Assembly: GCA_009602725.1 (NCBI GenBank)
Contig: WELB01000105.1
Span: 163,980-192,941, forward strand
DNA: 28,962 nt
Source: Spirogloea muscicola
Lineage: Eukaryota; Streptophyta; Zygnematophyceae; Spirogloeales; Spirogloeaceae
Reading direction: 5' to 3'
The position numbers were made by a program, and so were the translations under genes. Positions 3,850 through 28,400 of this stretch are shown here, piece by piece. A model generated the notes under the pieces. That model did no database searches. It was not told where the DNA came from and saw nothing but the letters and a program-made list of their open reading frames with translations. Position 1 is the first letter of the stretch, and every line of letters starts with the position of its first letter.

Positions 3850-4215
3850 GGGAAGTGTCTTTCTTCTTCCGAAAAGCGTCGTCCTGGCAGAACCTGGAGG
3901 CAGCAGCTCTCCCAACGAAGCAAGCTCTTGTGACCAATGGCTGTGAGAGGCCAGCCCAACCGAAAGTGCAAGGTCTGAAAGGGTCATCCAAAGAAGGCGA
4001 GGGCTGTGAAGGGCAGCCTCAAAAGGCTGGACAAGTAAAGCGAATGCGGCTGCTGATATTGAAAGAGCGGCCGTAAAAGCCAGGAGAGAGAGAAGGGGAG
4101 GAGTGTGTTTTAAGAAGCGCGGCCAGAGTGACTGGTGGCTACGAGAGGCCAGCCCAAAGGAATGGACACGGTCTGAAGGAGCCAAGTGCGAAGTGCTAAG
4201 ACGGCAGCAAGTGCG
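3850..4215 (-). mobile_element. Retroelement 3' tail fragments, minus orientation
   Basis: Read on the minus strand this holds at least three tail remnants. The hairpin arms appear on the plus strand as GGCTGTGAGAGGCCAGCCC near 3940-3960, as GGGCTGTGAAGGGCAGCC near 4000, and as GGCTACGAGAGGCCAGCCC near 4137-4156. The last copy runs from the GCGCGGCCAG end motif to GGTCTGAAGG and matches the subfamily-B tail at 22068-22140. The module containing TGCGGCTGCTGATATT (about 4044-4059) is the reverse complement of the ATCAGCAGCCGCA motif at 771-795. The copies fill most of the spacer between SPO11-2 and the exostosin gene. The 129-aa minus-strand frame here is a by-product of the repeat. Confidence 0.75.
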
Positions 4216-10900: not shown

Positions 10901-10940
10901 GGAGAAATGGCGGAGAGAAGGGCTCGCCCATTGAGGATAG

Positions 10941-10960
10941 GGGCTGGAAAAAGTCAGCCC
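10941..10960 (-). repeat. Conserved tail hairpin of the retroelement
   Basis: In element sense this is GGGCTGACTTTTTCCAGCCC, a 6-bp stem GGGCTG/CAGCCC with a pyrimidine-rich loop. It lies about 90 bases after the stop codon and is preceded by TTCATTCTTTT. Copies of this hairpin recur on both strands through the window. Confidence 0.8.
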
Positions 10961-11048
10961 AGAAAAGAATGAACAAAGGACGAGAAGGGGCCAGGGGAAG
11001 TACGAAGAACAACAAGCACAGAAAAGAAACGAAGCAGCTACGAAGCAC

Positions 11049-13777
11049 TCAGTAACCCCTGCTAAGCAGCCTCAGGTCAGAGAGACTGGGTTCCTGGAAG
11101 CGGGTCCCCTGGCCAGAGCCAGAGGCAGCAGCGAGGGCTCTGCCTGCACGCAGGTGCAGCGCGCGGGCCATAGACCTCTGCAGCGAGACGGCCAAGCGCA
11201 TGCGGTACACCTGCGCTAGCGACCCTGCTGCATGGGAGTCCACCGGCTCCCCATGGAAGCGGCGGACAATGGCGTGGCGTGAGAGCTGGTTGAGCAGCTC
11301 GAGCCACCGAGCGCCCAGCGCCCCGTGCATATCGATGGCGAGCGGGAAGAACTCGTCTTCCCGCGGGTAATCTGCGTATTTTAGCTCCTTGGCCCGAGCG
11401 GCGCAGGCTACCGCATACCCAGCCTTGGTGGCACACTGGGTTGGATGTGAGCGGTCATAGGATTCGGTGGTCACCACGTCCAGGAGAAGACGTGGCCCGC
11501 CTGCTGGTGGGGTGGCCACAAGGTCCACGCGACGAGCGTGGAGACCGTCGGCCCGTTGCTGGAGCGGCATGACGGCAGAGTTCTTGGCTGCCACCGAGAA
11601 GCCAGCCTCCACAAGGATGCCATGCATCGCATTCCGGAGATGGTCATGGGCCGCTGTCCGCTCTCCGCCGTGGGAACAGCGCAGAACATGAGCGGCCAGC
11701 TCCCCATGCTCGGCCCCTCGCTCGCCACATTCACACTGTTGCCCACCCTGGAGACATGGCGGCGGCAGGCCCAGGAGCCGGTGGACGGCACTGCGGAACA
11801 CATCGTCCGGGAGTGTGAGGGCTTCATTGAGGGGGAGGGCCTGGAGCCACGCAGCGGCGCCACGCCGCGGCCCCCGGGGAGGAGGCCGAGTGGAATCACA
11901 CGTGCCCGCGCAGGTCGGCCTCCGGGAGCTGGAGCAAGGGGGTTGTGAAGGCTGCCTTGTCCATTGCGGCTGCGAAGCGCGCTTGGACGCGCTGGTCGGC
12001 GGTGTGCGCGAGGTGCGCAAAGGAGACCGCCTGGCCCGCCACGTCCGGGTGCACCGCGAGCAGCTCCTGGTGGGCGGAGCGTAGCGACGCCTGGAAAGGC
12101 AGCACACCCGTGTCTACCTCCACCACCGCCTGCTCCAGCGCACGCTGGCCGTGGACCAAGAAACGCTGGGCCACGGAGGCGGCTGTCTGCGCCCAGCCGC
12201 CGAGGTACGCTGCCCGGCAGGAACGGACGAGCGGGCGCAAGCCGAGACCGCCGTATCTGAGGGGAAGCGTGGCCTGGTGAAGGGCGGCAGGCGACTGGGG
12301 GAAGCCCTGGTGGCGGACCAGGGCCGACAGGCTCGTCACCATGCCTGCGTCAAAACCCGTGTACGCCGCCAGCGCCCCTGGGGACGGCGGGGTGGCCCGC
12401 GTCAGATACTGGGGTCGCTCGGCACTGGCCTTGGTCAACATGGCCAAAGCCAGCTGCATATCCTGCAGCTCGGGCCGCAGGCTGGAGGTGCTCCTCGAGG
12501 CGGGCTCGCAGCTGCCCCTCCACGAAGGACGGCGCGCCGATGGGGACCCCCAGGAGGGTGAAGCCGTTTGCGGGAGTCAGGCATCCGGGGGGCAGCGCCA
12601 GGGTGGGTGGGAGGCCGCAGGGGGACCAAGCCGCACACTTCGACGCCCGGGTGGACAGGCCGAGGGTGGCCAGCTGCCGCTCGAAGGTGACGAAGGCCGC
12701 CGCCACGTCTTCCGGAGGGCCGACCATGGTGGTGTCGTCGGCGAAGGTGGGCAGTAGGACCCCTGGATGTGCCGCTGCGGTAGCCTGCAGAGCCCGGTGG
12801 TGAGCGAGCGCAAAGAAGAAGCCGGCGAGGGGGTCCCCTTGCCGCGTGCCCGCTTGGGACTGCAGGACCTCCACTTGGTCACCCCCTGTCCTCCTGAGGA
12901 GGTCGCTGGGCTTACCGTACCCCAAGCGGAAAAAGGGTACCAGGGAGGGGAAGGCGGCCCGGAGCTCCTCCGCGATGCAGCCGCGCTCCACGGTGTTGAA
13001 CGCATTTTTTACGTCGACGGCCAGTGCCAGCCACCCCGGGTGTTGGTCCAAGGTTGCACGGACCCCGTGGACCACGGCCTCGCCCCCACTCCGCAGCCCC
13101 GCGCCGTATTGATGTGGCGCCAGGTGCACCTGCGCCGGCCCCGCATGCTGCTGCCAGAGAACGCGGCTCACCAGGCGGTAGAGGACCTCTCCAATGGCAA
13201 TGGGCCTGACTCCCCTGCTCGGCTTGTCGAGGGCGAGCAGCGTGCTGGTGCACAGTACGCCATCCGCGGATGCTGGCCGGCACATTGTCCCGGGCCAGAT
13301 GCTGGCAGATCTGCAGCAGCGCGTTGAAGTCCGCAGCCTCTCCCTCGAGGAAGATCTCCGCAGGTGCTCAGTAAGCATGCGGGAGGGGCCACCGGCGGCT
13401 GCGCGACGGCTGGTCTGCAGAGCCTTCTTGAGGTCGTTGGCATCCAAGACCACCTCCTCTGGTGGAGCGAAGGCGGCCAACCACGGTGGCAGGGGGGAGC
13501 TCGCCGGGGGGTGCAGGGAGTCCAGGGCCGCCCGAGTCGCCGCATTGGTCGGCGCCAGCATCGTATCGTCGAGGGCCTGCACAGCCCTGGAAAGCTCACT
13601 CGCGTGGCCGAAGCGGAGTGCCCGACGGACGCTGGCGGCCCTGTCGGGCGCTGCCCCTGTGCCACCACGGTTGGCCGCAGAGGCTGCCACGGCGGCGTCA
13701 TGACGCGCCAGAAGCTCCTCCCAGTGCCCGCTCTCGAACAACTGGACGCGCTCCAGCAGGGGCTGCTGGTCCTGCAT
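11049..13777 (-). pseudogene. Reverse transcriptase/RLE polyprotein, five disabling lesions
   Basis: RT motifs: LLALDKPSRGVRPIAIGEV, VDVKNAFNTVE (motif A), AGTRQGDPLAGF (motif B), FADDTT at about 12732-12745 (YxDD box as FADD). A thumb-like part follows (GGLGLRPLVRSC, LPFQASLRS), then a knuckle CECG...HVLRCSH at about 11675-11735. The RLE-like domain has RVDLVATPP, LLLDVVTTESYD, then AKELKYADY and FPLAIDMHGALG. The C-terminus ends SDLRLLSRGY. Lesions: one base missing near 13357 and one extra near 13266, so about 90 bases are read out of frame and then restored; a frameshift near 12480; a TGA at 11896-11898 where a sister copy has Arg; and a 13-bp tandem duplication (GCCACGC at 11846 and 11859). 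The protein cannot be made as it stands. Most codons are still conserved, so inactivation looks fairly recent. Confidence 0.85.
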
Positions 13778-14170
13778 GCGGCTGTCGGGAGAGGCACGCC
13801 CGAGCAGCAGCGGAGCTCTACAAACCGTATGTAGGGTTTCCTTCTGTCCGCGTGGGGCATGATGGCACGGGCGGGCAAGGTTGTGGCGTTGCCCAGCAGC
13901 CAGGCGCAGGGTCAGGCGCCCAGCGACGAGGTCGATGACGGCGGAGCAGCGGGCTCAGCTGTGGCCGAGCACACTTTGCACGTCCTCAGCACCATGCAGC
14001 TGCGCCGCGAGGCTGTGTGCCAATCCGCAGCCACCGCGTCCTGGGAAAGTCGGCCTTGTCATGCCCTTGGGCGTCCACTGCAAGTGCACGACTTTGGGCA
14101 TGCGGATGGAGTGAAAGGCCGACAAGTCAGTATCCACTTGTTAGGCAAACAAGCCATTCAAGTATGACAG

Positions 14171-15283
14171 CCAGTTAGCGAGAAAATCAAAGAAGTAGCT
14201 TGTCAGATGATCTACACAAGCACGATGTATACGCAGAGGAGTCGACAAAAGAAGCCGTAATTGACAAGGTGCATGATATCTGGAAAGTTGACTGGACGAG
14301 TCACACTCAGGTCTGTGACTGCCTCATGTCGGCAGTGGACTGCCCTGACTAGCTCTGGACACGGCTCGACTACATTTGGCAAGGACTTTCTTCGTTTGTG
14401 GTAGGAAGGCACTTGCAAGCAGGCCATTCTTTGGCTGCTGCTCCGGTTTCAGCAGGTTGATGCTTTTCTACTTACGCCGCCCTATGGTTACGCCGATCTG
14501 CATTAAATGACTTGAGTGCATGGGCAACATCCGTTCGCTGTCACAAATGGTTCCATGTGTTTTGCTACACGGCCCTTTCTGACCTTGTTGAGTTCTATTG
14601 GGCTGAGCTCTTACAGCGATTGCCTTACATGGAAAGAGCTGTTTCTCAGATGTTGCTTCTCAATTGGCACCCTTAAGCAGATTGAGGTCCTCATCTCCAA
14701 ATAAGCACCTGCATGAAGCACCCAACGTTCCTGTAACATTCTTTGTGCTATCTTCAACTTAGAGTGGGAATCAACCAAGACTTGCCGGCTCCATCTTAAT
14801 CCTTGGAAGATCTGCACCCTTTTAAATAACACGGTGGCCAAAGGATGCCAGCCCAGAAGAGGGGTCAGACTGGGCGAGCACCAAGAGTGAATGGGTCTAG
14901 CTAGCGCGAGAGGATAATTCATGGGAACATTGACCTCAGGCTTCCTCTATATCACCCAGTTCATTGCTTGACATAACGCTGACAGCTAGATAATCGTGCT
15001 ACCAGAAGGCCAAGAGTGGGCGCTAACGTTAGTACCAATGACAAAGAATTGGTCGTAATCGTGCAATGCCAGCTCTTCAGGGAGGAAGATATTGTGTGAC
15101 AAGCGTTGCATTTCCTCTGTGATCGTTTGCTTGCTCTGCGCATGTCAGCAGTCAAGTTGGGAGGAGCACGTGCTCGATTGTGGCTCAGCTAGGCCTGCTG
15201 TGGACATTGCATGTTGCAAGCCCAGATGGCATTCAGCAGGTGTAGAGCCTAATGGCTCAAGCAATGAGATAAAAGTTGCCGGG
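14171..15283. other. Spacer with no recognisable gene; one old retroelement tail
   Basis: No ORF here shows a family or a convincing splice chain. The part 14582-14655 (+) aligns by eye with the subfamily-C tail: CCTTGTTGAGTTCTATTGGG, then GGGCTGAGCTCTTACAG, then a worn ATTGCCTTACATGG... block. It is a strongly decayed tail. The rest probably holds the 3' UTR of GLG1, which ends at 15284 on the opposite strand. No clear TGTAA was seen beyond the one overlapping the GLG1 stop codon. Confidence 0.5.
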
Positions 15284-18200
15284 TTACACATCACCAGCTT
15301 TTACTACGAGAGTATAATTTTTGTGAGGCCCATATAGTCTCCAATAAACCCCGTATACAAGGCCAATGAGTACTAATGCCAGCGACACGACTGCCATGAA
15401 AGCAGTCCAGCCAGTGAGCACCAGCCACTGGGAGCTCAAGGCTGCTGAGGGCCCAGATGCTTGGAGCTGCATAAGTGGTCAGGTAAGAAATCGTATTAGC
15501 TGGAAAAAAGAGATCTGCTAAATATTAATCACAGGTTGGCTTGCAGACATTCATTGGAGAAGGAACTTCAACCAACAGGCTTGGCAAGACCGCTGGAAGA
15601 GGGTATGGACAGGCAGGCCAGACGTAAAGCAACGGCTGCAGTGACAGGACCTCTCAAGTCAGCGAATCCCCAGCTCACATACCTCATGCAACTTGTCAAG
15701 TGTTTCTTGGAGCTGCTGCTGGTCAATGACACCCCCCACATAAGCACCATCCTTTTTCACGACTGTCACCAACTGCTTACACCCCTCATCCAGCTTGGAT
15801 TGCTCCTGAGAAAGCAAGCATTGCCCGTACAAGGCAATGACCGCTCCGTTGATCTCCTTTGCATCCTCACTTGAGCATGTTCTCTCCACATCTGCATCGC
15901 AGGCCTCCGTGAGGCTTGCACCCTTCTTGTATTGCCAGAGGGCCATCCGCACAGCGTAAGAAACCTAGATTTATGCAAATGGCACACATCAGTGCAAAAA
16001 CCCAATGTTGAGGTGCCTACAACGTGAAGTCTGCTACAGGTATGCTACAAGTAGTATAAATGCGATCGATTGTACTGTAGGACCGCTTCTATCTCATACT
16101 TTCTCACTCCCTTTAGCATGAGGCTTAATTCCATGTAACCCCAATCTTTGCACTAGCTTTGCCTGAACAGTGTATTGGCTTGATTTGGGCTTCCTTGCAT
16201 TTCATGCACCACGCGCCTTCTCTCATCCTAGAGTAGGACACTTTCAACTTGTGGTTTGACAGCAAAGTTCACCTCCAACATGAAAGTACAAAGCTGCAGG
16301 TAAGAAGGCATACCTCAGTTTGGCATCTCCCAGATAGTTCTTTGAACTTCTGTACAAAGCAACGGAGTACAGGCGCATGACCCTCCTGTCCCTTCTCAAC
16401 CCCAAGACAGTGGTCTGTTGCATCTGCCTCGCATGCTTTTCTCAGACTGACATCCAGCTTGTAGTTGGATGCACGCCGAGCTTCCTGCAGTCACAGCAAG
16501 CAATGCTACTAATGCTGGCAATGAAGTGTACTGAATGCTGGGCACTGGTGGCACAATAAGCTGATCGCGGAAGTGCTAGAAGATAAGCTGATAGCCAAGT
16601 GCTAGAAGCTCTTAAGAAGTATTCAGGTCCTCACAACATCAAGCAATGTGGTAATGCAGCAATCTACTGAAGTGTGAAGTACACAGGTGATAGCATCAAG
16701 CTGACCTGCAAATTGACTTCTCCCTTACAAGCAGCACTCATGCCTACGGCTTCTAGATTTGCTTGGAGGCACTTGAAGGCCTGGCTATCAGCAGGTGAGA
16801 CATCCCTGCAGAAAGTTTGGATCTCTGTCACACACATCCAAGGCAAACTTGAGGCAGGGGCCTTTCTTTGCCTGTCGTCAAAGTCTTTAAACTAATGCAC
16901 AATCACATAAGAAGAGGCTATGCCACGACGCTTAGGCAATTAAGTAAGAGGAGCTTGATGTGGTGTTATTATTAGATGGATACAACACTCTGAGGCTCGA
17001 GCATTAGCATGACTAGCAACTCCCTAGAGCAGCATACGACACTCATGTGCTGCCTGTAGGGTACAAAGCCTCTCATACCTTGTCCACAGGCGTTCATCAG
17101 TGTTGGAGTTAAGCGAAGGTCAGATGCCTGTGAGATCACAAGATATAACGCTTCACTCCAGAACATAATGGTGGGGTGATTCCAGACATCTGGTTTCTCA
17201 TGCTCATGCAAGCCATCAACAAGCAGCACAGTTGCTCCCATGGAGAAGGCTGCTGGACTCTTCAGCTGACTGATTGGAGGTTTTCAGAACCTCAGAAGGA
17301 TCTCACCTCCATCATGCTGAAACGCAGCTCCTCAGCTCTACATTCATCGGACAGGTTGTCCCTGTGACTCCGCAGGCAGGACAAAGAGTTGCCATGATCC
17401 TTGCTAGTCTCACGGCACATTTTGGCGAGATCATCTTCACAGGCAAGCTGAAGTGGCACATCCAGCCTGACATCAGCTACCTCCAGCTTCTCGAAAGAAA
17501 AGACTTCCTTCTTGCAGCTATCTGATGTCAGGTTCTCCATGTTCTCTGTCAAACACTTGAGGACTTTCCCGCTGCATGTGTCTGACACAGAAGTCTTGTC
17601 GCATGCATGCAGGCACAACTTCTGCACATCACTGTAACAGGCCTTTGAAAGCCTGTACATCAATCTGTAGTCTGCAAACAGAATGGGAACAGCAGCATCT
17701 GAATGATGGGCTTGCCTGGCTGAAGTAGATGTCTTACATCAGGTGCTGTTGTAACACATACAATATCTATGATGTATGGGTTGTGTACAGTAAGATCAGA
17801 TCATTGAAAAGATTCACGGATGTCAACTGCTCATGTGCACCTTGAGCACTTCGTAACTCGTTACGCTTCACCTCCTCTTTGCATTCTGTGCCCATCTCTG
17901 TCTCCTCGACTTTTTCTTGCAAGCACTTGATGATTGCAGCATGTCCTGGACTCGAGCATTCGTGCATTGATATTTTCTAGTTAGCGAGCGCCTCTGGGGA
18001 GAAAGTTTCGTCAACTCTGCAAGCCTAAAACCCAAGAAGACCTCCACAAGACTCTAGCATGCAAACAATGTGCAGCCACATACTTCAAAGACAGGATGAG
18101 AAGGTTTCGAGCTTCCCACATATGACTTGGGAGCCTCTCCAGACTATTATGAATATTCACTTGTACTTAAGGTTTAGGGGATAAAATTCTGCATTGTAAT

Positions 18201-21200
18201 CTCAGCAAGGAAAGTGGTTCAAGTGAATAATTGCACACCTTGCACTACATCTTTGCAGAGATTCTTGATTTCTGCAGAGCAAGCCTGCTTCATGGGGAAG
18301 TGGAAGTCAATGTCCTCAGCCAATCGCACTTCCTGCAAGAAGTTAAGGTAACATAGACGTCAACCATAAGTTGCATCAATTTCGTCCAAGAAGCATGATG
18401 TTGCAGCTCTTCCAAACAACCAAGATCTTCGTGCTTCTCACATGCCAATACATGGACGTCGCTTCAGTACAGATGGAGGTTCAAGGACCTGATCAAACAT
18501 GGAGCTTTTACAGAGAGGTTGTAACTCTTCGCGATGGTCCTGAAGGCATCTTAAGACCTGTGCCATTCCAAATGGCACATTACTGCAGTGCTTCTTCCTG
18601 TCAGCTGTTACAAGAACAGCAACTGTCAGTGCTAGGAACCTGCTATCCTGCTCTATTAAACCAGTGGCTAACCTCTGCAATGCAACATCTTGATCAAAAG
18701 GGTAAGTGTGAGAAACCAGGTAGTAGCTTCAGTTACTAGTCATTCACAATAGCAGGAGGCTCTCAAGTTACTATTGGGCGTCATGTGCTGATACTTGCAG
18801 ATGTGCAGCGTAGGTCTTCTTTCTGTCTCAATGGGGTAAGAAGCTCTCTGGTCTCTTCACGGACCTTGACAGACTTCTGCCAAAGGCCTGTCGAAGCGCA
18901 TGTCTTCAGCAGCTCTCTTTGTCAAACGATGCACCTGTTGTCGGCACTTCGGATCCCTCAGCTCCTCTCTGAAGTCCTGTAGACATTGGATTACCTTGGC
19001 ATCCCAGTTCTCTTCCCCAGATTGCTCCTTGTCGAAGTTGCACATCTGAGAGTGCGAAGGAAGCCCAGAGTCAGCATCACTATCTGTATCTAACAAGTAG
19101 GGACCTTAAGCACTGAGCAGGTAGCTTCCTGAGCAGCTTATGAACAATGAAGCAGTCAAACAAGAACCCATGTTACAGGTCGAGATATAGTGCATGCAAA
19201 AGGAGTAGCACCTCAATATCAGATGCACAGTACTTGCTGAGGGTAGGATCTAGGCGGAAGTCACTTGCCCGTCGCTCCATCATTCTGTCAAATTCCGTCT
19301 TGCTGCACAGTAACATAGGTGTGAAGGGACTTATTGGGGCAAACTCAGAGCCTCCTACAGTTGTAGTAATAAAAACCGTATAATACACAACCTCACAAAA
19401 GCTATCAAAGTCTGCTGTCAAAGGATATGTCAAGAGCACACACATAAAAGAGACTAAGAACACCAAGACTGCTTGACTAGGCATGAAAGGCTGTTCCAGG
19501 CACCAGCGGTGTATGAAACGGCAGTCAACGATTTAATCTGTGTGCCGCACCAGCTAGTCGTAAAATCTGGATCCAAACGATGACTTTCAAGGCAATCTTT
19601 CACCCGCGCATCGCCGGGTGTAACGTCATTGCAGAACTTCCTCTTGTCATTCAGGCATGCTGCAATGTGAAGCGCACAGTTACCAACCATGAAGCGGCAG
19701 AACGGCTGCCGCGCCCAATTCAAGTGAAAGGCGAGGTCCACGGACCCATGTGGTGACCACATGAGATATTGCAGTCAGTTAGCAGACACCCCACAGCAAG
19801 TATACCTCGAAAGAGTCTAACGTCAAGTCTTATATCATCTGCATTTTCTTGCTCCTGTCGGAAAAGTGCGTCCCGGCAATTCCAGTCCAGCTTTGTTCGA
19901 TGCTCCCTCTGCACTAGCCACCAAAGTGTGAAAAACGCTTTGGTGTCCCAATTCACCTAGATTGAGTGACAATGTTTTGTTCCACGATAGATATTAAGCA
20001 GTACTACCAAGTAACCACCTGCCAAAAGGTAGGAGGCCGCTCATCTAGCAAAACAGGATGGAAAGCTGTTGATGGCGGGTCTTTTATACCAAGCATGTCT
20101 GAATGCGTGCTTCCCCATAAGGGATGTCCTTGCACAGTTTCTTTGCATCTGGAGAGCAGAGCTCGTCAAGCTGAGGATCTAGCTTAAAGTCAGTTGCAGC
20201 ATCCAGCTGAGCTTGGAATATCTGCTCCTTGCAAGCTTCAGTTACACTATCCTTTATCGCCCTGCACGATAGCAACCCAAATGGCCAAATCAGATTGCAT
20301 ATCATGAAGCCGTAGTAATCTAAAATCTAGCTACCATGCCCAGCAGGAAGTGTACATTGGCAAGGACTCCTTAGAATTCCTGCAAGCTCACCACTAAGAG
20401 AGCCTATCAAGGTGTCAATTAATGCATAAGAATAATCTGAACCTAACCTCAGACAAGCAAGGATGTCTCCAGGTCCTGGATAGAGGGAGTTGTCATCACA
20501 AGATGAGGAGATCTCATTCTTACATGCATCCACTGCATGCCAGCCACAGGAGATGGGAGGGTGGTTATAAGGCTTTGTGAGCAGCTTTGAAAGAGTGCAT
20601 CACCATCACCAACATCAAAGCTGCTGATAGTACAAGCTGCTTACAGCAACTGAATTGTAGGATGCCAAGACCTACCAGGAATTACTTCTAGGTCTGGATC
20701 CCTAAGCCAACAAGCTGGTAAAACGTACACGCTCAACCATCAATACAGTATAAAGGCATGCTCTCACAGGTTGCCATATGTCAGGGACGTCCACAGGCAC
20801 TCACCCAGCTTCTTGTCGAGCTCTGTGTCCCTGTACATCTCAATCTTAAAAGCCCGCAGCTCAAGCTTACACACCTTGGAGACCTGCAGACCTGCGTGCG
20901 CCAGTTGAGGCGCTTTTATGCAATCTACTAATTGCTCGTCTCTCAACGCACAGATTGAGTGCCTTCCCCAAGCTCTTGTGCAGGTCAACCAATGCTTGTG
21001 CAGGTGTCTTTGCTGGAGTCTCACTTTGCAACTCATTGGCTACTTTCTCGGCCTTCAAGCGGGCTGTGATGCAATCTGCTAATCTGGCTCCTCCCGCAGG
21101 AACATCCTTGCAGTAGGTGGCCACTTCCTGGCGGCACCCGCCTGCAGTAGGACGTCTTTGTTGCCCTTAGTACAAGAAGCGTAGCTCGAAGCACGACGCC

Positions 21201-21532
21201 AACGGCAGTGGTAACTTCCACGCAGTGCAGCCAAGGATCACTGTAGTCTTGTCTCTCTTCACACTGTTCCCAAGACTCAGATCGCAGTTGAAGGAGCACA
21301 CACCATCCTTGGAGATGTCGTCAGCAGATCTGGGCTCGTTGAGAAGCGATATGGTCGCATTCCTCTTGGCTGCACGGTTCGAGGCCGCGTCGCCCGGGGC
21401 CACAGCATTCGCCGAGCCGAGAGCCGCGAGCAAAGCCAGGACGTAAAGGCCGACCCTCAGGCGCTGCTTCTGCTGTAGCCAAAGCGCCAAGAAGTGCTTG
21501 CGATCGTGGTCAGAACCTCTGATCCTGAACAA
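15284..21532 (-). CDS. GLG1: Golgi apparatus protein 1 homologue (GLG1/ESL-1/MG-160), 18 exons
   Basis: Type I membrane protein of the Golgi with tandem Cys-rich GLG1 repeats; animal members bind FGFs, TGF-beta and E-selectin, and the algal role is unknown. Exons (minus, 5' to 3'): 21532-21304, 21141-21025, 20891-20805, 20532-20448, 20261-20090, 19908-19806, 19659-19530, 19302-19212, 19045-18865, 18604-18489, 18332-18239, 17945-17841, 17671-17307, 17127-17079, 16824-16706, 16484-16314, 15964-15683, 15466-15284. Phases agree and give 892 aa. Signal peptide: hydrophobic core about 27-40 with cleavage after ANA43. About a dozen repeats follow, with patterns such as CRQEVATYCKDVPAGGARL, LCKDIPYGEARIQTCL, KFCNDVTPGDARVKDCL and RLDVPLQLACEDDLAKMC. 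One transmembrane helix lies at about 847-872 and a short basic tail follows. Introns often fall inside repeats and in mixed phases. Animal GLG1 is longer, about 1,180 aa with 16 repeats, so this copy has fewer repeats. Confidence 0.92.
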
Positions 21533-21860
21533 TCTGCGGGTGACGCAGAAGCGCCGCCGGCGAGTGTCTGCAGGCGAAGCTCCGGGGCGCGGCAGCGAGG
21601 CTGACCCGCCGGCATCGCCGCGGCCGGAAGCCCGAAGCCGGATGTTTCGAGAGCGCAGGGCGGCGCACCATCTCGCCGGCCCTGCCGGTTGGCGCGGCGC
21701 TCAGGCGTTGCATGGCCGGAGGCGCATCGAGGCCGCCGGCTGAAGTCGTCTCACGGGCGCGGCGGCGGCGGCGNGCAATCGGGCGACCCGCGCGTGGGCG
21801 GTTCGGGGGGGCGAGCGGCGAGCGGCGGCGGGCGCGGGCCAGGGCCGGCCGCGGGTGGCC
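21533..21860 (-). promoter_or_regulatory. GC-rich upstream region of GLG1
   Basis: This GC-rich block lies directly 5' of the GLG1 start codon and probably holds its promoter and 5' UTR. It contains the only ambiguous base of the window (n at 21774, in a GGC run). A retroelement tail begins about 330 bases upstream of the GLG1 ATG. Confidence 0.4.
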
Positions 21861-22058
21861 AGACGAAAAGAATGCGGCAGCTGATAGTAAAAGGGCAGCT
21901 GTACAGAAGAAAGGGCTCGCCCATTGAGGATATTGGGCTGGAAAAGCCAGCCCATGAAAGAAGGAACAAAGTACGAGAAGAGGGGCCAGGGGAAGCGCTA
22001 AGAAGAAGCACCACAACAAGAAACAAAGCAGCAACGAAGCACTCAGTAACCCCTGTAA
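21861..22058 (-). mobile_element. Retroelement subfamily-A tail
   Basis: Minus-oriented. It contains the last codons (RGY then TGA at about 22045), the 3' UTR, the hairpin (plus strand GGGCTGGAAAAGCCAGCCC at about 21931-21949), the CCCATTGAGG block and an ATCAGCTGCCGCA module. It matches 10905-11050. The coding part is cut off at about 22058 by the next fragment. Confidence 0.8.
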
Positions 22059-22059
22059 A

Positions 22060-22423
22060 AAGGAAGCAAGCGCGGCCAGATTAACTGGTGGCTGGGAGAG
22101 GCCAGCCCAAAAGAATGGACAAGGTCTGAAGGAGTCGGAGTGCTAAGGACTGAGACAGCAGTAAGCGAACTCTCAGTAACCTCTCGTCAGTAGATGCAAG
22201 TCTGAGTAGCTAGCAGGCGGAAAGACGTCGCCCTGACGGAAGCCGGAGGCCGCCGCCAGAGCGCGGCCTGCGCGCAAATGGACCGCAAAAGCTGCAAAGA
22301 GACGGCCAGGCGCATCCGGTAAACTTGGGCGAGGGACCCGGCGACATGGAAGCCGGGCTGCTCGCCTTGCTGCCCGTCGCGGCGGGCCGCTGCTCGCCGC
22401 GCAAGGCGGTGAAGGAGTAAAGC
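22060..22423 (-). mobile_element. Retroelement subfamily-B C-terminus and tail
   Basis: Minus-oriented. The coding remnant 22423-22173 reads HVAGSLAQVYRMRLAVSLQ, then after a frameshift VHLRAGRALAAASGFRQGD and SDLHLLTRGY with TGA at 22173-22175. The tail runs to about 22068, with hairpin GGCTGGGAGAGGCCAGCC on the plus strand and the subfamily-B end motif GGCCGCGCTTGCT in element sense. It is nearly the same as 23935-24315. It is cut at its 5' side, where it meets a copy pointing the other way. Confidence 0.8.
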
Positions 22424-22945
22424 CGAGCAAAGGCCGCTCGCAGCAAGGCGGCCAAACACGCCGACCACCCGGCTGCCGATGAGTTCGTCCCCCTGGCTGT
22501 GGACGTGCACGGGGCTCTCGGATCCCACTGGCTCGACCTGTTGGCCAGGCTTGCACGGCGCGCTGTGTCCCGCAGGCGCGGTGAGCCGGCTGCCTTCAAC
22601 GCCGCTGGCTCGTGGGCTCAGGTATATCGTTTGCGCTTGTCCGTCTCCCTCCAGCGGTCCATGGCCCACGCCTTGCATCTGCCTGCTGGCCGTGCTCTCG
22701 CTGCGGCCTCCGGCTTTCGTCGGGGGGATAGTTTTCCGGCAGCTAGTCTGTCGGATGTGAGGCTCCTCACTCGTGACTACTGAGTGGTCCATCCTCCCCC
22801 GTTCTGCCATAGCCTCTTCAGGCCCCGTAGTCGCTGCTTAGCTCGTAGTTTGGCCCCTTCGAACCTTGTCAATTCTTTTCGGGCTGGCTTCTCACAGCCC
22901 TTGCCCCCATTGGGAGAGCCACTTCTTCTTCTGTAAAGCGCCCCC
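22424..22945 (+). mobile_element. Retroelement subfamily-C C-terminus and tail
   Basis: Plus-oriented. It begins abruptly in the RLE region (ADHPAADEFVPLAVDVHGAL), continues through RRAVSRRRGEPAAFNAAGSW and ends SDVRLLTRDY with TGA at 22781-22783. The 3' UTR is followed by hairpin GGGCTGGCTTCTCACAGCCC and CCCCCATTGGGAGAG. The frame is open over the whole fragment. Its tail is almost identical to 23510-23655. Confidence 0.85.
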
Positions 22946-22985
22946 GTGTCAGCAACGGCAAGTTAGATGAGCTGAGGGGAGGAAA

Positions 22986-23022
22986 GGCGCGCGGTTCGCA
23001 TGAGAATGAAAGGGAGGCCAAA
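22986..23022 (-). repeat. GGCGCGCGG...GCATGA motif, copy 1
   Basis: A block of about 37 bases, GGCGCGCGG-TTCGCATGA then GAATGAAAGGGAGGCCAAAG, recurs at 27224-27259 and 28464-28499, always in this orientation. In the second copy it lies 5' of a minus-oriented hairpin, so it may belong to a 3' UTR of another subfamily. Confidence 0.6.
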
Positions 23023-23051
23023 GCTGAGCCTCACAGGCCGGTAACCGGGCA

Positions 23052-23658
23052 ATCAGCCGCGGCGGCTTGGGATGTCGCTCAGTTGCCCGCGCCTGCGAGG
23101 CGGCCTACATGGGTAGCTGGGCTCAGGTGGCAGCCCCCATGTGCCAGAGGTTCCTCGTCCACGGCCAGCGTGCCTCGGAGCGGGCGGCAGCTGAATTGGA
23201 GATCGGCCAGCTGCCCTTTCAGGTTGCCCTCCGCTCTCTGGGCTCTCGGGTCCCACTGGCTCGACCTGCTGGCCAGGCTTGCACGGCGCGCTGTGTCCCG
23301 CAGGCGCAATGAGCCGGCTGACTTCAACGCCGCTGGCTTGTGGGCTCAGGTATATCGTATGCGATTGTCCGTCTCCCTTCAGCGGTCCATGGCCCACGCT
23401 TGCATCTACGTGCTGGCCGTGCTCTCGCTGCGGCCTCCGGCTTTCGTAAGGGGGGATAGTTTTCCGGCAGCTAGTCTGTCGAATTTGAGTCTCCTCACTC
23501 GTAACTACTGAGTGGTCCATCCTCCCCCGTTCTGCCATAGCCTTTTCAGGCCCCGTAGTCGCTGCTTAGCTCGTAGTCTGGCCCCTTCGAACCTTGTCAT
23601 TTCTTTTTCGGCTGGCTTCTCACAGCCCTTGCCCCCATTGGGAGAGCCACTTCTTCCG
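23052..23658 (+). mobile_element. Retroelement subfamily-C copy with internal deletion
   Basis: Starts in the thumb region (SVARACEAAYMGSWAQ, RFLVHGQRAS, LPFQVALRS). At about 23238 it jumps to GSHWLDLLARLARRAV near the C-terminus, with a frame change. The knuckle and most of the RLE domain are therefore missing. It ends in a worn LLTRNY with TGA at 23509-23511 and a tail with hairpin and CCCCCATTGGGAGAG. The short shared run CTCT/GGGCTCTCGG at the junction suggests deletion between short repeats. Confidence 0.8.
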
Positions 23659-23712
23659 CTCTGCCCGCGACGGGCTCCTGGCGGTCCACCCCAACATGTC
23701 GGAGGAGGCCGT
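23659..23712 (+). mobile_element. Subfamily-D copy, 5' piece, split by an insertion
   Basis: Reads RSARDGLLAVHPNMSEEAV, matching RSAHQELLAVHPDVAGQAV in the copy at 11-14 kb. The sequence then breaks off into a subfamily-B copy and resumes at about 24316 with AAFIHLAHTPDL, which follows directly in the uninterrupted protein. Confidence 0.7.
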
Positions 23713-24315
23713 CCCTTGCCGACGTCGTCACAACGGACTCCTTGGATTCCAGGAGCGCTACACGCTCGGCGGAGGAGACGGGCTACGCCGTCCGCCAAGC
23801 GGCCGACGCAAAGGAGCGCAAGTACTCGGATCACCCGGTAGGCGACGAGTTTATCCCACTCGCCGTCGACGTACACGGCGCCTTTGGCGCCAAATGGCTT
23901 GACCTACTTCACCGCCTTGCGCGGCGAGCAGCGGGCCGCCGCCACGGGCAGCAGGGCGAGCAGCCTGGCTTCCATGTCGCCGGGTCCCTCGCCCAAGTTT
24001 TCCGGATGCGCCTGGCCGTCTCTTTAAAGCAAGCGCGGCCAGATTAACTGGTGGCTGGGAGAGGACAAGGTCTCTTTGCAGTGGTCCCTAGCTTTTGCGG
24101 TCCACTTGCGCGCAGGCCGCGCTCTGGCGGCGGCCTCCGGCTTCCGTCAGGGCAACGTCTTTCCGCCTGCTAGCTATTCAGATTTGCATCTACTGACGAG
24201 AGGTTACTGAGAGTTCGCTTACTGCTGTCTCAGTCTTTAGCACTCCGACTCCTTCAGACCTTGTCCATTCTTTTGGGCTGGCCTCTCCCAGCCACCAGTT
24301 AATCTGGCCGCGCTT
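23713..24315 (+). mobile_element. Subfamily-B copy inserted inside a subfamily-D copy
   Basis: A 5'-truncated subfamily-B element. It starts within the RLE core at LADVVTTDSLDS and reads ETGYAVRQAADAKERKY, DHPVGDEFIPLAVDVHGAFG, HVAGSLAQVFRMRLAVSL. It is then interrupted by a 44-bp insert (24026-24069), resumes with VHLRAGRALAAASGFRQG and ends SDLHLLTRGY with TGA at 24208-24210. The tail has hairpin GGCTGGCCTCTCCCAGCC and ends at GGCCGCGCTTGCT about 24315, where the host element resumes. It shows the 3' end of the subfamily precisely. Confidence 0.8.
24018..24077 (-). mobile_element. Very short tail insertion with 8-bp target-site duplication
   Basis: GTCTCTTT occurs at 24018-24025 and again at 24070-24077. 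Between them lie 44 bases that read, on the minus strand, as a subfamily-B tail (CTCTCCCAGCCACCAG to GGCCGCGCTTGC) with a small internal deletion that removes half of the hairpin. Removing the insert and one GTCTCTTT restores the host reading frame across the site (RLAVSL to SLAFAVHLRAG). Confidence 0.75.
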
Positions 24316-25445
24316 GCTGCTTTCATCCACCTCGCCCACACCCCTGACCTGCGTGCCCAGGCACGCTTCTCGGCGCTGGTTGATAAAGCGGCCTCTGACC
24401 AGGTGGTGGAGCTTCTCCCTCCGTCTGACCTTCGAGGGCGCGCCCGGCTGCTCTCAGCCTCCTCCCCTGGGGCGGCGGCGTGGTTGTCAGCGCTCCCACT
24501 CCACGCGGCGCTCACCATGCCCAATGAGGTCTTCAGGACGGCTGTCCACCGGCTCTTGGGCCTCCTCCCTCCCTCCCAGCCGCATTCTCTGCCTCGTGGA
24601 CGTCACTCAGTGCAAGTGCGGTGCCCGTCACGCTGAACCTGCGGAGCTGGCTGCGCATTTGCTCCATTGCGCACACGGGGGCGAGCGGACCTCTTCCCAC
24701 GATCTCCTGCGAGATGGTATTTAGGGGGTGTATACGGAGGCTGGCTTCAAGGTGGCTGTGGAGAATTCCTCAACAATGCCCCTCCAGCTGGGCGCGGACG
24801 GCCAGCCCCATACACGACGCGCCGACCTGGTCGCCATCCCGCCCGGCGGCGGTCCCCGCATCATCGCCGATGTGGTGACAACTGACTGCATCGACTCCGC
24901 CAATCCCAACAGATCGGCGTCGTTTGCAGGGCACGCGGTCGGCCTGGCGGCCCGGGGCAAGGAGCGAGAAAATGCTGATCACCCGATTGGTGATGAATGC
25001 GCGGCCCTGGCGATGGATGTACACGGGGCTATCGGCAGCCGCTGGCTGGATGACCTTCAGCAACTTGCCCGCCAGGCCATTGACCGGCGGCCGGGTCTGC
25101 CAGGGGCGATGCCCAGCTTCAAGGCCGCCGTTTTGCTCGCCCAAGTCTTCCGCATGCGCTTGGCGGTATCGCTTCAACGCTCCTTTGCCCACGCCGTCCA
25201 CACGCGAGCAGGCCGGGCTATGGCCGCCGCCTCTGGGTCTCGGCGGAGTGCCTCTTTCCCTGCAGCGAGCTACTCAGACCTGATCTCACTCGTGGGTACT
25301 GAGCTTCCCTCTGCATCGTCTATGTGTTCTGCAGTGTTATGTAGAGTAGTCCTTTCCGACTCCTCTTTCTTTGGCTTTGGACATTGTCCATTCTTTATTG
25401 GGTTGGCTTTGCCAGCCCCTCTTCTCTATGGGCGAGCACTTTGTT
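24316..25445 (+). mobile_element. Subfamily-D copy, 3' piece: knuckle, RLE domain and tail
   Basis: The second best preserved copy. It reads AAFIHLAHTPDLRAQARF, DLRGRARLLSASSPGAAAW and FRTAVHRLLGL. After a frameshift near 24590 it has the knuckle CKCGARHAEP...LLHCAH and GGERTSSHDLLRD, with a stop (TAG) at about 24721. The RLE core is RRADLVAIPPGGGPRIIADV, then NADHPIGDECAALAMDVHGA and LAQVFRMRLAVSLQRSFAHA. A 4-base deletion at about 25283 destroys the normal LLTRGY end. The tail has hairpin GGGTTGGCTTTGCCAGCCC, in which a C-to-T change still pairs as G-U. It is close kin to 27700-28350. Confidence 0.85.
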
Positions 25446-25489
25446 GCTAAGGGCGAGGAAGAGCAACCCCGCTGCGCAAGCCAAGACGG

Positions 25490-25565
25490 GCGGAGTTGAC
25501 GGGGCTCTCCCAATGGGGGCAAGGGCTGTGAGAAGCCGTCGTTCCCCCGTTCGGGAAACGCCTTC
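25490..25565 (-). mobile_element. Subfamily-C tail fragment, minus orientation
   Basis: The plus strand shows GGGGCTCTCCCAATGGGGGCAAGGGCTGTGAGAAGCC, the reverse complement of the CAGCCCTTGCCCCCATTGGGAGAG tail at 22890 and 23625. The coding part is absent. Confidence 0.65.
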
Positions 25566-25597
25566 CACCGACCCCGCTTCTTTCTTTTCTTTGATGG

Positions 25598-25835
25598 CTT
25601 CACCGCGGGCTTGGTGACGACGGACGCGTTCGACCACGCCAACCCCACTCCATCTGCCTCGGAGGCCGGGCACGCTGTGGCCAGTGCTGCTCGAGGCACG
25701 GAGGCGAAGTATGCTGCCCATCCTTGGGGAGGACGCTTTCTTCCCCCTTGCCATCGACGTCCACGGGGCGTTCGACGCTCGGCGGCTCGAGCTCCTGCAC
25801 CGGCTAGCGCGCAGCGAGGTATCCCTACATCCACT
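25598..25835 (+). mobile_element. Retroelement RLE-domain fragment
   Basis: Reads LVTTDAFDHANPTPSASEAGHAVASAARGTEAKYAAHP, then after a frameshift EDAFFPLAIDVHGAFDARRLELLHRLARSEV. It is closest to the subfamily-A copy at 11-14 kb (VVTTESYD, FFPLAIDMHGALGARWLELL). It is cut at both ends and has no tail. The stretch 25836-25999 after it holds nothing recognisable. Confidence 0.7.
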
Positions 25836-25999
25836 TGGCAGGCTCTCTCCCCCAGAGAGAAGGCGCCCAGTGCGCAAGATATGAAAGGTTGCCGAATCAA
25901 GTCAATACATCTGCTCCGGCAAAAGCTAGTGCAAGAAGTGGGACTATATGAAACGAAACCCTATGCTGAGGTGGTTAAGGTACCAGTGTGACATAAATG

Positions 26000-26695
26000 C
26001 GGGTGAGCACATATACATCCGACAAGCTGAGTCGGGGAGCCGGAGCGCCGCCACGGAAGCCGGTGGCCTGCCTTGAAGTCCGTCCAACTCAGCAAGGGGG
26101 TTTCTTGGACAAGGGTGTCGATCTGGTAGGCGTCCCCCTGGGAGGTGGCAAGCGGCTCCTCATGGACGTCATCCTCACCAACAACTTCCGGAAGAAAGGC
26201 CCCATCACATCTGAGACTGGCTACGCTGTGAAGGTGGCCGAACAGAAGAAATGACATAAGTACAAGGACCACCCGGCTGGCGATATCTTTTACCGCCTGG
26301 CCATGGGTATTACGGGGTTCTGTGGTCCTCGTTTTGCTGCTGGCCTCTCAAGCTGACCAGCGGCGTCGCAAACAGGGTGCAGCACTTCCTGGAGGCTCGG
26401 TGCCTTCAGGTCTTCTGTCCTACTACGGCATGCGTCTATCTATGTTCCTACAGCGGTCCCATGCGCTTGCTGTGCCCAGCCGAGCCCGTCGCCCTTGCAG
26501 CAGCCTCTGGCTTGTGCAGCGGGGTTGCTCTTCTACCCTCAGCTCATCTGACTTCCTACTGCTAACACGAGATTAACAAGAGCGCCCTGTTTGCCTAGCA
26601 GGTGAATCCATCATGAACACCTTCTGTATGCAGTTAGCTGGCTTTCACAGCCGCTCTTTGAACATCAGCAGCCGCATTCTCTCTCGCAAGCACGC
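26000..26695 (+). mobile_element. Diverged retroelement C-terminal half with decayed tail
   Basis: A more distant relative. It has KGVDLVGVPLGGGKRLLMDV and ETGYAVKVAEQKK, then a stop and KYKDHPAGD. The end is SSDFLLLTRD with TAA near 26574. Several frameshifts occur in between (MRLSMFLQRSHALAVPSRAR survives). A worn tail at about 26633-26695 has AGCTGGCTTTCACAGCCG and ATCAGCAGCCGCATTC. The RLE pattern RxDLV...LLxDV is kept although the sequence differs from subfamilies A-D. Confidence 0.7.
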
Positions 26696-26914
26696 CCAGC
26701 ACGCTGATGAATAGCCAGAGCTTACGAACCCCTGCAAACGAAGAGCGCCGTATGCTGTAATATGCAACTAATGCTCTGCGGAATGCTACTGTGCCCCAAG
26801 CTGCCCCCCCGCGACTGCGCGACGCGCGTCAACCAGCCGAGGCAGATGCTGGACATGAGGGAGGACCACTTCATACCGTAGCCACCGTAAATACCGACAG
26901 CGCACAGATGGAAG

Positions 26915-27118
26915 TGGTCTCCTCGGGTGTGGTCCTTGTAGTGCCTCTCCTTTTCGCCCGGGTATATTGCATGCGCCTCTCAGCATTGCTGCAGCGGTCA
27001 ATGGCACACGCGTTGCATGTGTGCACCGGTCGTATTTGGCTGCATCCTCTGGCTATAGACAGGGACCCGCTACCTGGAGACTGATTTCCCGGACGTGCGG
27101 CTGCTCACTAGGGAAGAA
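26915..27118 (+). mobile_element. Strongly decayed retroelement C-terminus
   Basis: Reads VYCMRLSALLQRSMAHALHV and, in another frame, DFPDVRLLTREE before a TGA near 27118. These match the conserved YRMRLAVSLQRSMAHALHL and SDVRLLTRDY. The stretch 26696-26914 before it shows no recognisable content. Confidence 0.6.
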
Positions 27119-27265
27119 GTGAGCTCTTCCAAAGGGGGCGGGGCTTGTGAAATCTAGCCCAGAGAGAATGAACAATGAAAGGGCCGAAATGCGCCAAAAA
27201 CTTTCCGCTATGCAAAAGAGAGAGGCGCGCGGGGCGCATGAAATGAAAAGGGAGGCCAATTCAAG
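27119..27265 (-). mobile_element. Retroelement tail, minus orientation, with GGCGCGCGG motif copy 2
   Basis: In minus sense: GGCCTCCCTTTTCATT, then the GCGC...CCGCGCGCC block (27224-27259), then TTGTTCATTCTCTCTGGGC, a worn hairpin, and CCCCCTTTGGAAGAGC. It joins directly to the C-terminus of the plus-oriented copy at 27118. Confidence 0.6.
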
Positions 27266-27339
27266 CCAATACACAGTTCAAGCAGAGGCGAGTGAAAAGA
27301 GGGGGTATTGAGCACCCAGTGGCCACTCTGGTCGCTGTG

Positions 27340-27640
27340 TGCCTTTTCCTTGTCCATTCCTTTGGGCTGGCCTCTCCCAGCCACCAGTCCATCTGGCTGC
27401 GCTTTTCTCTTTTCTGACTCCTTAGAGCTTTGTTCATTCTTTTTACTGGGCTCTTCAAAGACAGCCATCGCCCTCCACTGAAGAATCTTCCTCTCTGAAC
27501 AGCTATTTATCTTGAGTTTCTCGCCTCCTATCGAAGAGCTTTCCCTGGCCCCTTCGAAATTTGTTCATTCTTCTTCCTGGGCTGACCACTCACAGCCACC
27601 GCCCTCTACTGGAAGCGTCTTTTCTATGACAGAGCTGCTT
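27340..27640 (+). mobile_element. Three consecutive retroelement tails
   Basis: Three tails follow each other: 27348-27408 (subfamily-B type, GGCTGGCCTCTCCCAGCC, ending ATCTGGCTGCGCTT); 27430-27485 (TTTGTTCATTCTTTTT, CTGGGCTCTTCAAAGACAGCC); and 27545-27640 (TTTGTTCATTCTTC, GGGCTGACCACTCACAGCC, then CACCGCCCTCTACTGGAAGC). The last ending also occurs at 637-655 and 28365-28390 and marks another subfamily. No coding sequence remains. Confidence 0.7.
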
Positions 27641-27644
27641 CTTC

Positions 27645-28115
27645 CAGAAAGAAGAAGTGGCTCTTCCAAATGGGGGCAAGGACCGTGCTCGCCCGTAGAG
27701 AAGAGGGGCTGGCAAAGCCAGTCCAAATAGAATGGACAATGTCCAAAGCCAAAGGAAGAGGTGCCGAAAAAGGACTCACCTCAAATAACTACAAAACACA
27801 AGACGATGCAAAGGGAAGCTCAGTACCCGCGAGTGAGCAACATCAGATCGGAGTAGCTCGCTGCAGGGAAAGAGGCACTCCGCCGAGACCCAGAGGCGGC
27901 AGCCATAGCACGGCCTGCTCACGTGTGGACGGCGTCGGCAAGGGAGCGTTGAAACGATCTCGCCAGGCGCATACGGAATACTTAGGCGAGCGAACCGGCG
28001 GCTTTGAAGCCGGGCAGCGACCCTGGCAGACCCGGCCGCCGATCAATGGCCTGACGGGCAAGCCGCTAGAGGAGATCCAGCCAGCGGCTGCCGAAAGCAC
28101 CGTACAAGAGTAGCC
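27645..28115 (-). mobile_element. Subfamily-C tail piece and subfamily-D C-terminus, minus orientation
   Basis: 27645-27700 is a reversed subfamily-C tail (CCCCCATTTGGAAGAGCC in element sense). From about 27700 a subfamily-D copy runs in minus orientation: tail with hairpin arms GGACTGGC/GCCAGCCC, 3' UTR, and a coding remnant up to about 28115. The remnant is in broken frames and matches QAIDRRPGLPGAMPSFKAA and SLQRSFAHAVHTRAGRAMAA of the copy at 25050-25270. It is 5'-truncated at about 28115, where it faces a plus-oriented copy. Confidence 0.75.
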
Positions 28116-28144
28116 ATGCTGAGGACCGGAAGCAGCAGCCAAGA

Positions 28145-28400
28145 GTGTTGCCGGGGCTTTGCAGAGCGAGCTACTCAGACCTGATGTTGCTCACTCGTGG
28201 GTACTGAGCTTCCCTCTGCATCGTCTCTGTGTTCTGCAGTGTTTTGTAGTGTAGTCCTTTCTCCGGCTCCTCTTTCTTTGGCTTTGGACATTGTCCATTC
28301 TTTTTTGGGCTGGCTTTGCCAGCCCCTCTTCTCTATGGGCGCGCACTTCCCTTTGCCTCTCCCAGCCACCGCCCTCTCCTGGAAGCGTCTTTCTTCCTAC
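28145..28400 (+). mobile_element. Subfamily-D end and tail
   Basis: Starts within the last codons (AGCTACTCAGACCTGATG, then LLTRGY and TGA near 28207). The 3' UTR is nearly identical to 25300-25440 and is followed by hairpin GGGCTGGCTTTGCCAGCCC and CTCTATGGGCG. After that comes the CACCGCCCTCTCCTGGAAGC end of another tail type. It lies head to head with the copy ending at 28115, with about 30 bases between them. Confidence 0.75.

What the first reader, a model, noticed from the sequence alone, without database searches (positions are those of the whole stretch)
10905..28400. A hairpin shared by all subfamily tails of one non-LTR retroelement lineage
About twenty places on both strands show pyrimidine-rich sequence, then GGGCTGG-loop-CCAGCCC, then an ATGGG or ATTGGG block, within roughly 150 bases after a worn LLTRGY stop. 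Examples: 575, 4137, 10941, 21931, 22089, 22885, 23610, 24277, 25398, 27365, 27575, 27705 and 28305. The 3' UTRs of the four subfamilies differ, but the stem core GGCTG/CAGCC persists while loops and closing pairs vary, including a G-U substitution at 25398. This pattern suggests selection on RNA structure. In R2 and related elements the RT recognises a 3' UTR structure to start target-primed reverse transcription; the same role is inferred here.
Basis: partly seen in the sequence, partly recalled or inferred. Interest (0 to 1): 0.75.

Follow-up and report, generated by a model that had tools for sequence, protein, structure and literature searches.

The report
Shared tail hairpin of green-lineage retrotransposons
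Thousands of copies of several related jumping-gene families in one green photosynthetic genome end in the same short RNA hairpin about 45 bases before their last base, most likely the handle by which their copying enzyme finds its own RNA; the principle is known from other elements, while this lineage and its unchanging stem are new to me.

Summary
The hairpin is real. Core GGCTG-N6..10-CAGCC occurs 14 times in the window against 0.79 in shuffles. GGGCTGG-N2..12-CCAGCCC occurs 9236 times in the 153-Mb genome against 3 for the reversed pattern. It is the inner part of a ~60-nt 3'-terminal module of an R2-like, single-ORF non-LTR lineage. Five families (A-E) share the module, although the rest of their 3' UTRs is within 0.05 of shuffled identity. 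Inserts have one fixed 3' end without poly(A), are 5'-truncated (median about 88 nt), carry short target duplications, and often abut another element's 3' end. This fits target-primed reverse transcription from the tail. Support for structure is indirect: arms nearly fixed and loop free; a second clade (F) with another such hairpin; and, in A and B, a predicted outer helix whose 3' strand is the 'ATGGG block', with one compensatory difference to D but also broken variants. Best reading: an RT-recognition tail of 'stringent' type, a new member of a known kind.

The parts
12350..13954 (-). RT-bearing ORF of the longest family-A copy in the window
   Evidence: RVT_1 E 3.7e-14
11049..12113 (-). 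C-terminal ORF of the same copy: Cys/His knuckle and RxDLVA..LDVVTT motif, ends LLSRGY-stop
   Evidence: endonuclease assignment by motif only
10942..10959 (-). family A tail hairpin (GGCTGACTTTTTCCAGCC, one mismatch)
576..593 (+). family A tail hairpin, exact
21936..21952 (-). family A tail hairpin, exact
3939..3956 (-). worn family C/E-type tail hairpin (family by eye)
4137..4155 (-). family C tail hairpin, worn
   Evidence: C-terminal LLTRRY stop upstream
22090..22107 (-). family C tail hairpin, exact
24276..24293 (+). family C tail hairpin, exact
27365..27382 (+). family C tail hairpin, exact
22882..22899 (+). family D tail hairpin (stem GGGCTG/CAGCCC)
23610..23627 (+). family D tail hairpin
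25400..25417 (+). family B tail hairpin with the G-U change
27707..27724 (-). family B tail hairpin with one mismatch
28308..28324 (+). family B tail hairpin, exact
27580..27597 (+). family E tail hairpin (core GGCTG/CAGCC only)
28293..28298 (+). 5' strand (GTCCAT) of predicted outer helix, family B
   Evidence: RNAfold, 62-nt tail z -4.73; predicted only
28335..28340 (+).
   Evidence: predicted only

Best explanation
The hairpin is the core of a ~60-nt 3'-terminal RNA module of an R2-like non-LTR retrotransposon lineage in a green photosynthetic genome. Shown by sequence: a fixed 3' end ~45 nt after the hairpin start; heavy 5' truncation; short target duplications; no poly(A); a module shared by families A-E whose other 3' UTR is unalignable; a different near-fixed-arm hairpin in related clade F. 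Inferred: the encoded RT protein binds this module on its RNA, places the terminal CUUUCUUCU at the nicked target and starts target-primed reverse transcription there. Because the arms are fixed and the loop is free, the contact is probably with the stem and/or the conserved flanking UUCAUUC, not the loop. A and B tails (D by eye) may close with an outer helix (CAUU/AAUG in A, CAAU/AUUG in D).
For: One representative each of A-E: tail module identity 0.65-0.79 (shuffled 0.55-0.61), rest of UTR 0.41-0.60 (shuffled 0.40-0.59), hairpin start to 3' end 43-49 nt. With anchors outside the stem, A, D, C and E tails (3285, 1055, 1897 and 60 matches; reversed controls 0) show, in the lists of at most about 100, stems mostly intact and loops differing by lineage. 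Of 73 A 3' ends chosen by the 3' end alone, 62 reach past the hairpin and 54 of these hold it exact. Of 11 long-ORF copies, 9 end at ..GAGCACTTTCTTCT or within a few letters of it; in the other two (L054, L056) the tail is broken before that. Truncation points of the 73: 6 to >400 nt upstream of AATGGGCG, median 68, 11 of 73 inside or downstream of the hairpin. 25 of 64 share >=6 nt between flanks against a mean of 4.8 and maximum of 12 in 200 shuffles. 12 of 64 abut another element's 3' end against 114 of 20000 random window positions. RT matches only R2 proteins 9nl3/9nl2/9dou, E about 1e-6. Clade F: 1193 anchored tails (control 0), GGCC..GGCC arms mostly intact, loop 2 to 9 nt in the list. 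Precedents: PMC4176376, PMC12503042, PMC3747384.
Against: No covariation in the inner stem. Fold z-scores are strong only for B (-4.73 for 62 nt, -3.00 whole UTR) and whole A UTR (-3.72); C, D, E and the F tail L147 lie between -0.2 and -1.3. The D-type tail L086 has a minimum-energy fold that does not contain the inner hairpin. The outer helix is broken in variants seen in 3 or more copies each: GTTGATT and GTTCCTT (A), GTGAATT (D). No binding data. The endonuclease was not identified by profile or fold. Composite tails show that ends can be exchanged, so sharing need not mean selection.
Confidence: 0.66

Rival explanations
1. The module is recognised as linear sequence (CATTCTTTT-GGGCTGG..CCAGCCC), and the hairpin is incidental.
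For: Arms and flank are both conserved; no compensatory signal in 119 tails.
Against: Arms are complementary in two clades with unrelated arm sequences (A-E and F), while loops vary in sequence and length; F copy L073 has a stem lengthened on both sides.
Confidence: 0.17
2. No function: the tail is shared because recent bursts and 3'-end exchange (template switching) spread one 3' end among families.
For: A body with B tail in L005; B-type upstream and hairpin with A-type end at C1:1556879. 12 of 64 inserts abut another element's end.
Against: Each family has its own downstream block and loop while the arms stay; swapping whole ends would make the ends identical.
Confidence: 0.15
3. The hairpin is a signal for forming or protecting the RNA 3' end, like a histone-type stem, and acts only indirectly on copying.
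For: Fixed 3' end without poly(A), at a near-constant distance from the stem.
Against: None tested; not exclusive of recognition by the RT.
Confidence: 0.12

Closest known systems
R2 retrotransposon 3' UTR RNA
   Same: Single ORF with finger-like N-terminal motifs and R2-like RT; structured 3' RNA used at TPRT start (passages of PMC12503042); template jumping by R2 RT in vitro (passages of PMC8857657).
   Different: About 60 nt against a longer R2 3' UTR (R2 length from memory); inserts scattered, not in one site; short target duplications; Cys/His knuckle spacing differs.
Stringent LINEs of the L2 clade (ZfL2-1, ZfL2-2)
   Same: Short hairpin in the 3' tail, recognised by the element's own protein (abstract and one section of PMC4176376).
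   Different: There the loop gives specificity and stems can be swapped; here the stem letters are fixed and the loop is free. Those elements are APE-type (from memory).
Plant L1 lineage with conserved 3' hairpin (maize/sorghum LINE1, ZmSINE2/3)
   Same: Green-lineage LINE with a conserved ~45-nt hairpin end (passages of PMC3747384).
   Different: L1 clade, compensatory stem changes and conserved loop letters there; here no poly(A), near-invariant stem, R2-like RT.
Dualen/RandI of green algae
   Same: LINEs of green algae with SINE partners (tables in PMC3747384).
   Different: They carry both endonuclease types (from memory) and end in short repeats; here no APE family was found at E<=1.

Membership tests
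RLE-type (R2 group) non-LTR retrotransposon | R2-like reverse transcriptase | tested here: met
   RVT_1 E 7.9e-16; only PDB relatives at E<=0.01 are R2 proteins
RLE-type (R2 group) non-LTR retrotransposon | single ORF, N-terminal zinc fingers, no APE endonuclease | tested here: inconclusive
   1350-aa open frame L041/L042 and no APE family at E<=1 fit; C2H2 matches are below cut-off (E 0.09-0.4), the two finger motifs are read by eye
RLE-type (R2 group) non-LTR retrotransposon | CCHC knuckle CX2-3CX7-8HX4C before the endonuclease (PMC5678591, passages) | tested here: not met
   here CX1CX11-12HX3C in A, B and F (read)
RLE-type (R2 group) non-LTR retrotransposon | restriction-like endonuclease fold at the C terminus | tested here: inconclusive
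   motif R.DLVA..LDVVTT only; AF2 model pLDDT 36.7; no PDB profile hit at E<=1
Stringent LINE tail | conserved hairpin close to a fixed 3' end, shared by families | tested here: met
Stringent LINE tail | covariation in the stem | tested here: not met
   stem too invariant for power
Stringent LINE tail | own protein binds the tail and needs it for mobility | not testable with these tools
   needs bench work
Stringent LINE tail | SINE partner with the same tail | tested here: inconclusive
   upstream flanks of the inserts were compared with each other; the shared pieces were not sorted into LINE and non-LINE

The most novel reading that the evidence does not exclude
A clade of R2-like LINEs scattered through a green genome uses one interchangeable 60-nt, two-helix tail, read through its stem and not its loop, across at least five families. 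One family's RT can therefore copy another's RNA, so that insertions are chains of mixed 3' ends, and most inserts stop within about 100 nt.
Probability: 0.28. Interest if true: 0.65.

Novelty: new member of a known kind. Interest (0 to 1): 0.42.

Why it matters
If the module is the RT's handle, a 60-nt tail with a fixed stem and thousands of natural variants gives a compact system for asking what an R2-type RT reads in its RNA, and whether related families copy each other. It would also place R2-type tail recognition in the green lineage, where the 2013 table I saw lists L1, RTE, RTEX and RandI families (passages of PMC3747384).

Tried and rejected
Covariation of the inner stem: no signal. 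First structure string had the wrong length (error), repeated correctly. AF2 model of the C-terminal ORF on four window proteins: pLDDT 36.7, not used for fold search. C-terminal profile against PDB: 0 hits. Rfam scan of the window: 0 matches. RT relatives in viral contigs: none confirmed. Truncation hot spot at the hairpin edge: 6 of 73 at 27-30 nt, about 2.4 expected from the 37 points within 6-68 nt (expectation by hand); too weak after choosing the window, so rejected. Outer helix: in the minimum-energy fold of the A UTR, B and L013; D pairs by eye only; L004 and L019 prefer CUCGUNC/GGGCGAG (the L019 centroid keeps the outer helix); three variants break it; kept open. A third element family (H) ends in GCGC-NCC-GCGC next to its 3' end; its relation was not tested. 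Clade F: GGCC is self-complementary and near-invariant, so pair counts there would be uninformative and were not run. Literature: five searches gave, in the listings shown, no report of such elements in green algae or streptophytes; one search matched 2,887 papers and listed 12, one search matched 51 and listed 10, one search matched none. Subscription journals and Repbase were not searched.
Full report
What is there. The window lies in a 153-Mb genome (G000, contig C105). The host has chlorophyll a/b antenna genes (68 exon matches). One exon product (L043) finds plant-type LHC chains in the PDB. The lowest E-value is a two-domain chain, 9vfj (Euglena, from memory); the next ones are, from memory, moss and land-plant entries. 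A streptophyte is likely but not shown.

The hairpin. The core GGCTG-N6..10-CAGCC occurs 14 times in the window against 0.79 in shuffles (maximum 3 of 100); 18 places fit within two substitutions after a pyrimidine-rich stretch. GGCTGG..CCAGCC occurs 6 times against 0.04. Genome-wide, GGGCTGG-N2..12-CCAGCCC occurs 9236 times against 3 for the reversed pattern. Of 20 such places fetched on contig C1, 19 read by eye as element tails; L038 did not.

The element. Minus strand 13954-11049 holds RT and C-terminal ORFs in different frames. The C-terminal part gives 116 matches; 115 of 20121 first-look candidates were scored. L041 and L042 hold the same 1350-aa open frame, in mirrored settings on C20 and C338, and may be one duplicated locus. 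RT: RVT_1 E 7.9e-16; C2H2 matches below cut-off; no APE family at E<=1. PDB phmmer gives only R2 proteins at E<=0.01, E about 1e-6, over the RT; a profile gives the same three chains. The Cys/His knuckle has spacing CX1CX11-12HX3C, unlike the CX2-3CX7-8HX4C printed for RLE LINEs (passages of PMC5678591). The endonuclease is assigned by motif only.

The tail. The order is stop, pyrimidine-rich UTR, TTGTTCATTCTTTTTT, hairpin, linker, family block, and an abrupt end at CTTTCTTCT without poly(A). Of 20 tails downstream of relatives, 13 hold the exact A hairpin and L001 a one-mismatch one. L005 has a B tail joined on, L008 has lost the 3' arm, L007 is decayed, L002 and L011 are interrupted before it, and L006 reads N. 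Of 11 long-ORF copies, 9 reach the common end and two (L054, L056) are broken before it. Families: A loops CTTTT/CTTGT/TTGTT/TTATT/CTGTT with ATGGGCGAGC; B loop CTTTG with CTATGGGCG; C with CCAGT.AATCTGGCCGCGC; D six-pair stem with ATTGGGAGAGC; E with ACTGGAAGCGTC. With anchors outside the stem the genome has 3285 A, 1055 D, 1897 C and 60 E matches (five of the 60 are, by eye, A tails followed by an E end); reversed controls are 0. The lists show at most about 100 each. Of 73 A 3' ends chosen by the 3' end alone, 62 reach past the hairpin, and 54 of the 62 hold GGGCTGG..CCAGCCC exactly.

Shared tail, unshared UTR. Between one representative each of A-E, the UTR upstream of the module is within 0.05 of shuffled identity (0.41-0.60 against 0.40-0.59), the module above it (0.65-0.79 against 0.55-0.61), and hairpin start to 3' end is 43-49 nt. 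Some starts and 3' ends were set by eye, so these numbers are approximate.

Structure. Inner-stem covariation is absent: 119 distinct tails, five core pairs, 93.4% of cells paired against 93.5% shuffled, one doubly changed cell against 1.0. The outermost pair fails in 25 of 119 rows, 16 of them C and E, which have A there. Rows dropped: 9 of the 128 listed, mostly long or composite; before that, 8 of 14 E candidates were dropped by a filter on stem letters, seven of them chance matches and one (L027) a readable tail with a G-U, and one chance match each from B and D. RNAfold gives the inner hairpin in the minimum-energy folds of the A-E tails tried, with z -1.90 (A, 60 nt), -4.73 (B, 62 nt), -0.73 (C), -0.99 (D), -0.97 (E); whole UTR -3.72 (A), -3.00 (B), -0.37 (C), -0.68 (D), -1.30 (E). 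The D-type tail L086 folds otherwise. A (whole UTR) and B show an outer helix: GUUCAUU/AAUGGGC and GUCCAU/AUGGGC; by eye D can form UCAAU/AUUGG. Against it: of 128 A, B and D tails mapped without these strands as anchors, variants GTTGATT, GTTCCTT and GTGAATT, each in 3 or more copies, break a pair; the folds of the whole D UTR and of L101 lack it; L004 and L019 prefer CUCGUNC/GGGCGAG. The C and E folds do not show it.

Clade F. A related clade (45% identity to A over a 147-aa C-terminal piece) has another tail: 1193 anchored matches, control 0, with GGCC..GGCC arms mostly intact, loops of 2-9 nt in the list, and AATACACG near the end. L073 has a stem lengthened on both sides. Two clades therefore carry different near-fixed arms with free loops near the 3' end. 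This is the best indirect support for structure. Limits: GGCC is self-complementary, and folds are weak for L147 (z -0.2, -1.0) and L109 (-0.55), better for L108 (-2.60) and L073 (-3.34).

How copies arise. CTCAATGGGCGAGCMCTTTCTTC has 2405 matches in the genome, control 0. All 56 on contig C1 and the first 17 on C2 were read: n = 73. Truncation points run from 6 to over 400 nt upstream of AATGGGCG, median 68; 11 of 73 lie within 22 nt, inside or downstream of the hairpin. Two estimates (C1:910731, C2:372058) have low alignment scores. Nine with too little or N flank were dropped; of 64, 25 share at least 6 nt between the flanks against 4.8 in shuffles, and 12 have another element's 3' end at the 5' junction (A 3, B 3, C 2, E 2, F 2) against 114 of 20000 random window positions. 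In L060/L061 an 8-nt duplication GAAACAAA encloses 19 nt of a C end joined to a near full-length A copy: this looks like template jumping in one event. The others could also be insertions at old ends.

Mechanism. Shown: common 3' module, fixed end, truncation, duplications, end-to-end joins. Inferred: RT protein binds the module, nicked target meets CUUUCUUCU, TPRT starts. R2 and L2-clade LINEs give precedents (PMC12503042 passages; PMC4176376 abstract and one section; PMC3747384 passages). In ZfL2 elements loops decide and stems can be swapped; the fixed stem and free loop here suggest the reverse, which is testable.

Verdict. A real, genome-wide feature, most likely an RT-recognition tail of a known kind, in a lineage that I did not see in the listings of my literature searches.

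Noticed in passing
L060/L061 (G000:C195:89051-94451): Near full-length A copy preceded by 19 nt of a family-C 3' end, the pair enclosed by an 8-nt duplication GAAACAAA: looks like template jumping.
   Followed up: partly
L070 (G000:C1:297900-299300): Chain of very short ends: A end, C fragment starting in its stem, A fragment of about 30 nt starting downstream of its hairpin.
   Followed up: partly
L041 and L042 (C20, C338): Identical 1350-aa ORFs in mirrored surroundings on two contigs: assembly duplicate or large duplication.
   Followed up: no
window near 22997, 27235 and 28475, minus strand; L063, L092 and others: A further element family (H) ending CATGCGCMCCGCGCGCCTTCTCTC, with a GCGC/GCGC hairpin next to its 3' end.
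   Followed up: partly
C1:1556879 (L112) and C2:372058 (L139): Upstream B-type sequence 98.9% alike over 93 nt; in the first a B-type hairpin runs straight into an A-type 3' end, in the second a short A-type end follows the B tail's own end.
   Followed up: no
window 17292-17738, minus strand: Host-gene exon with Cys_rich_FGFR repeats (E 1.2e-21).
   Followed up: no
window 6745-7326: Weak Exostosin_GT47 match below cut-off in a probable host gene.
   Followed up: no
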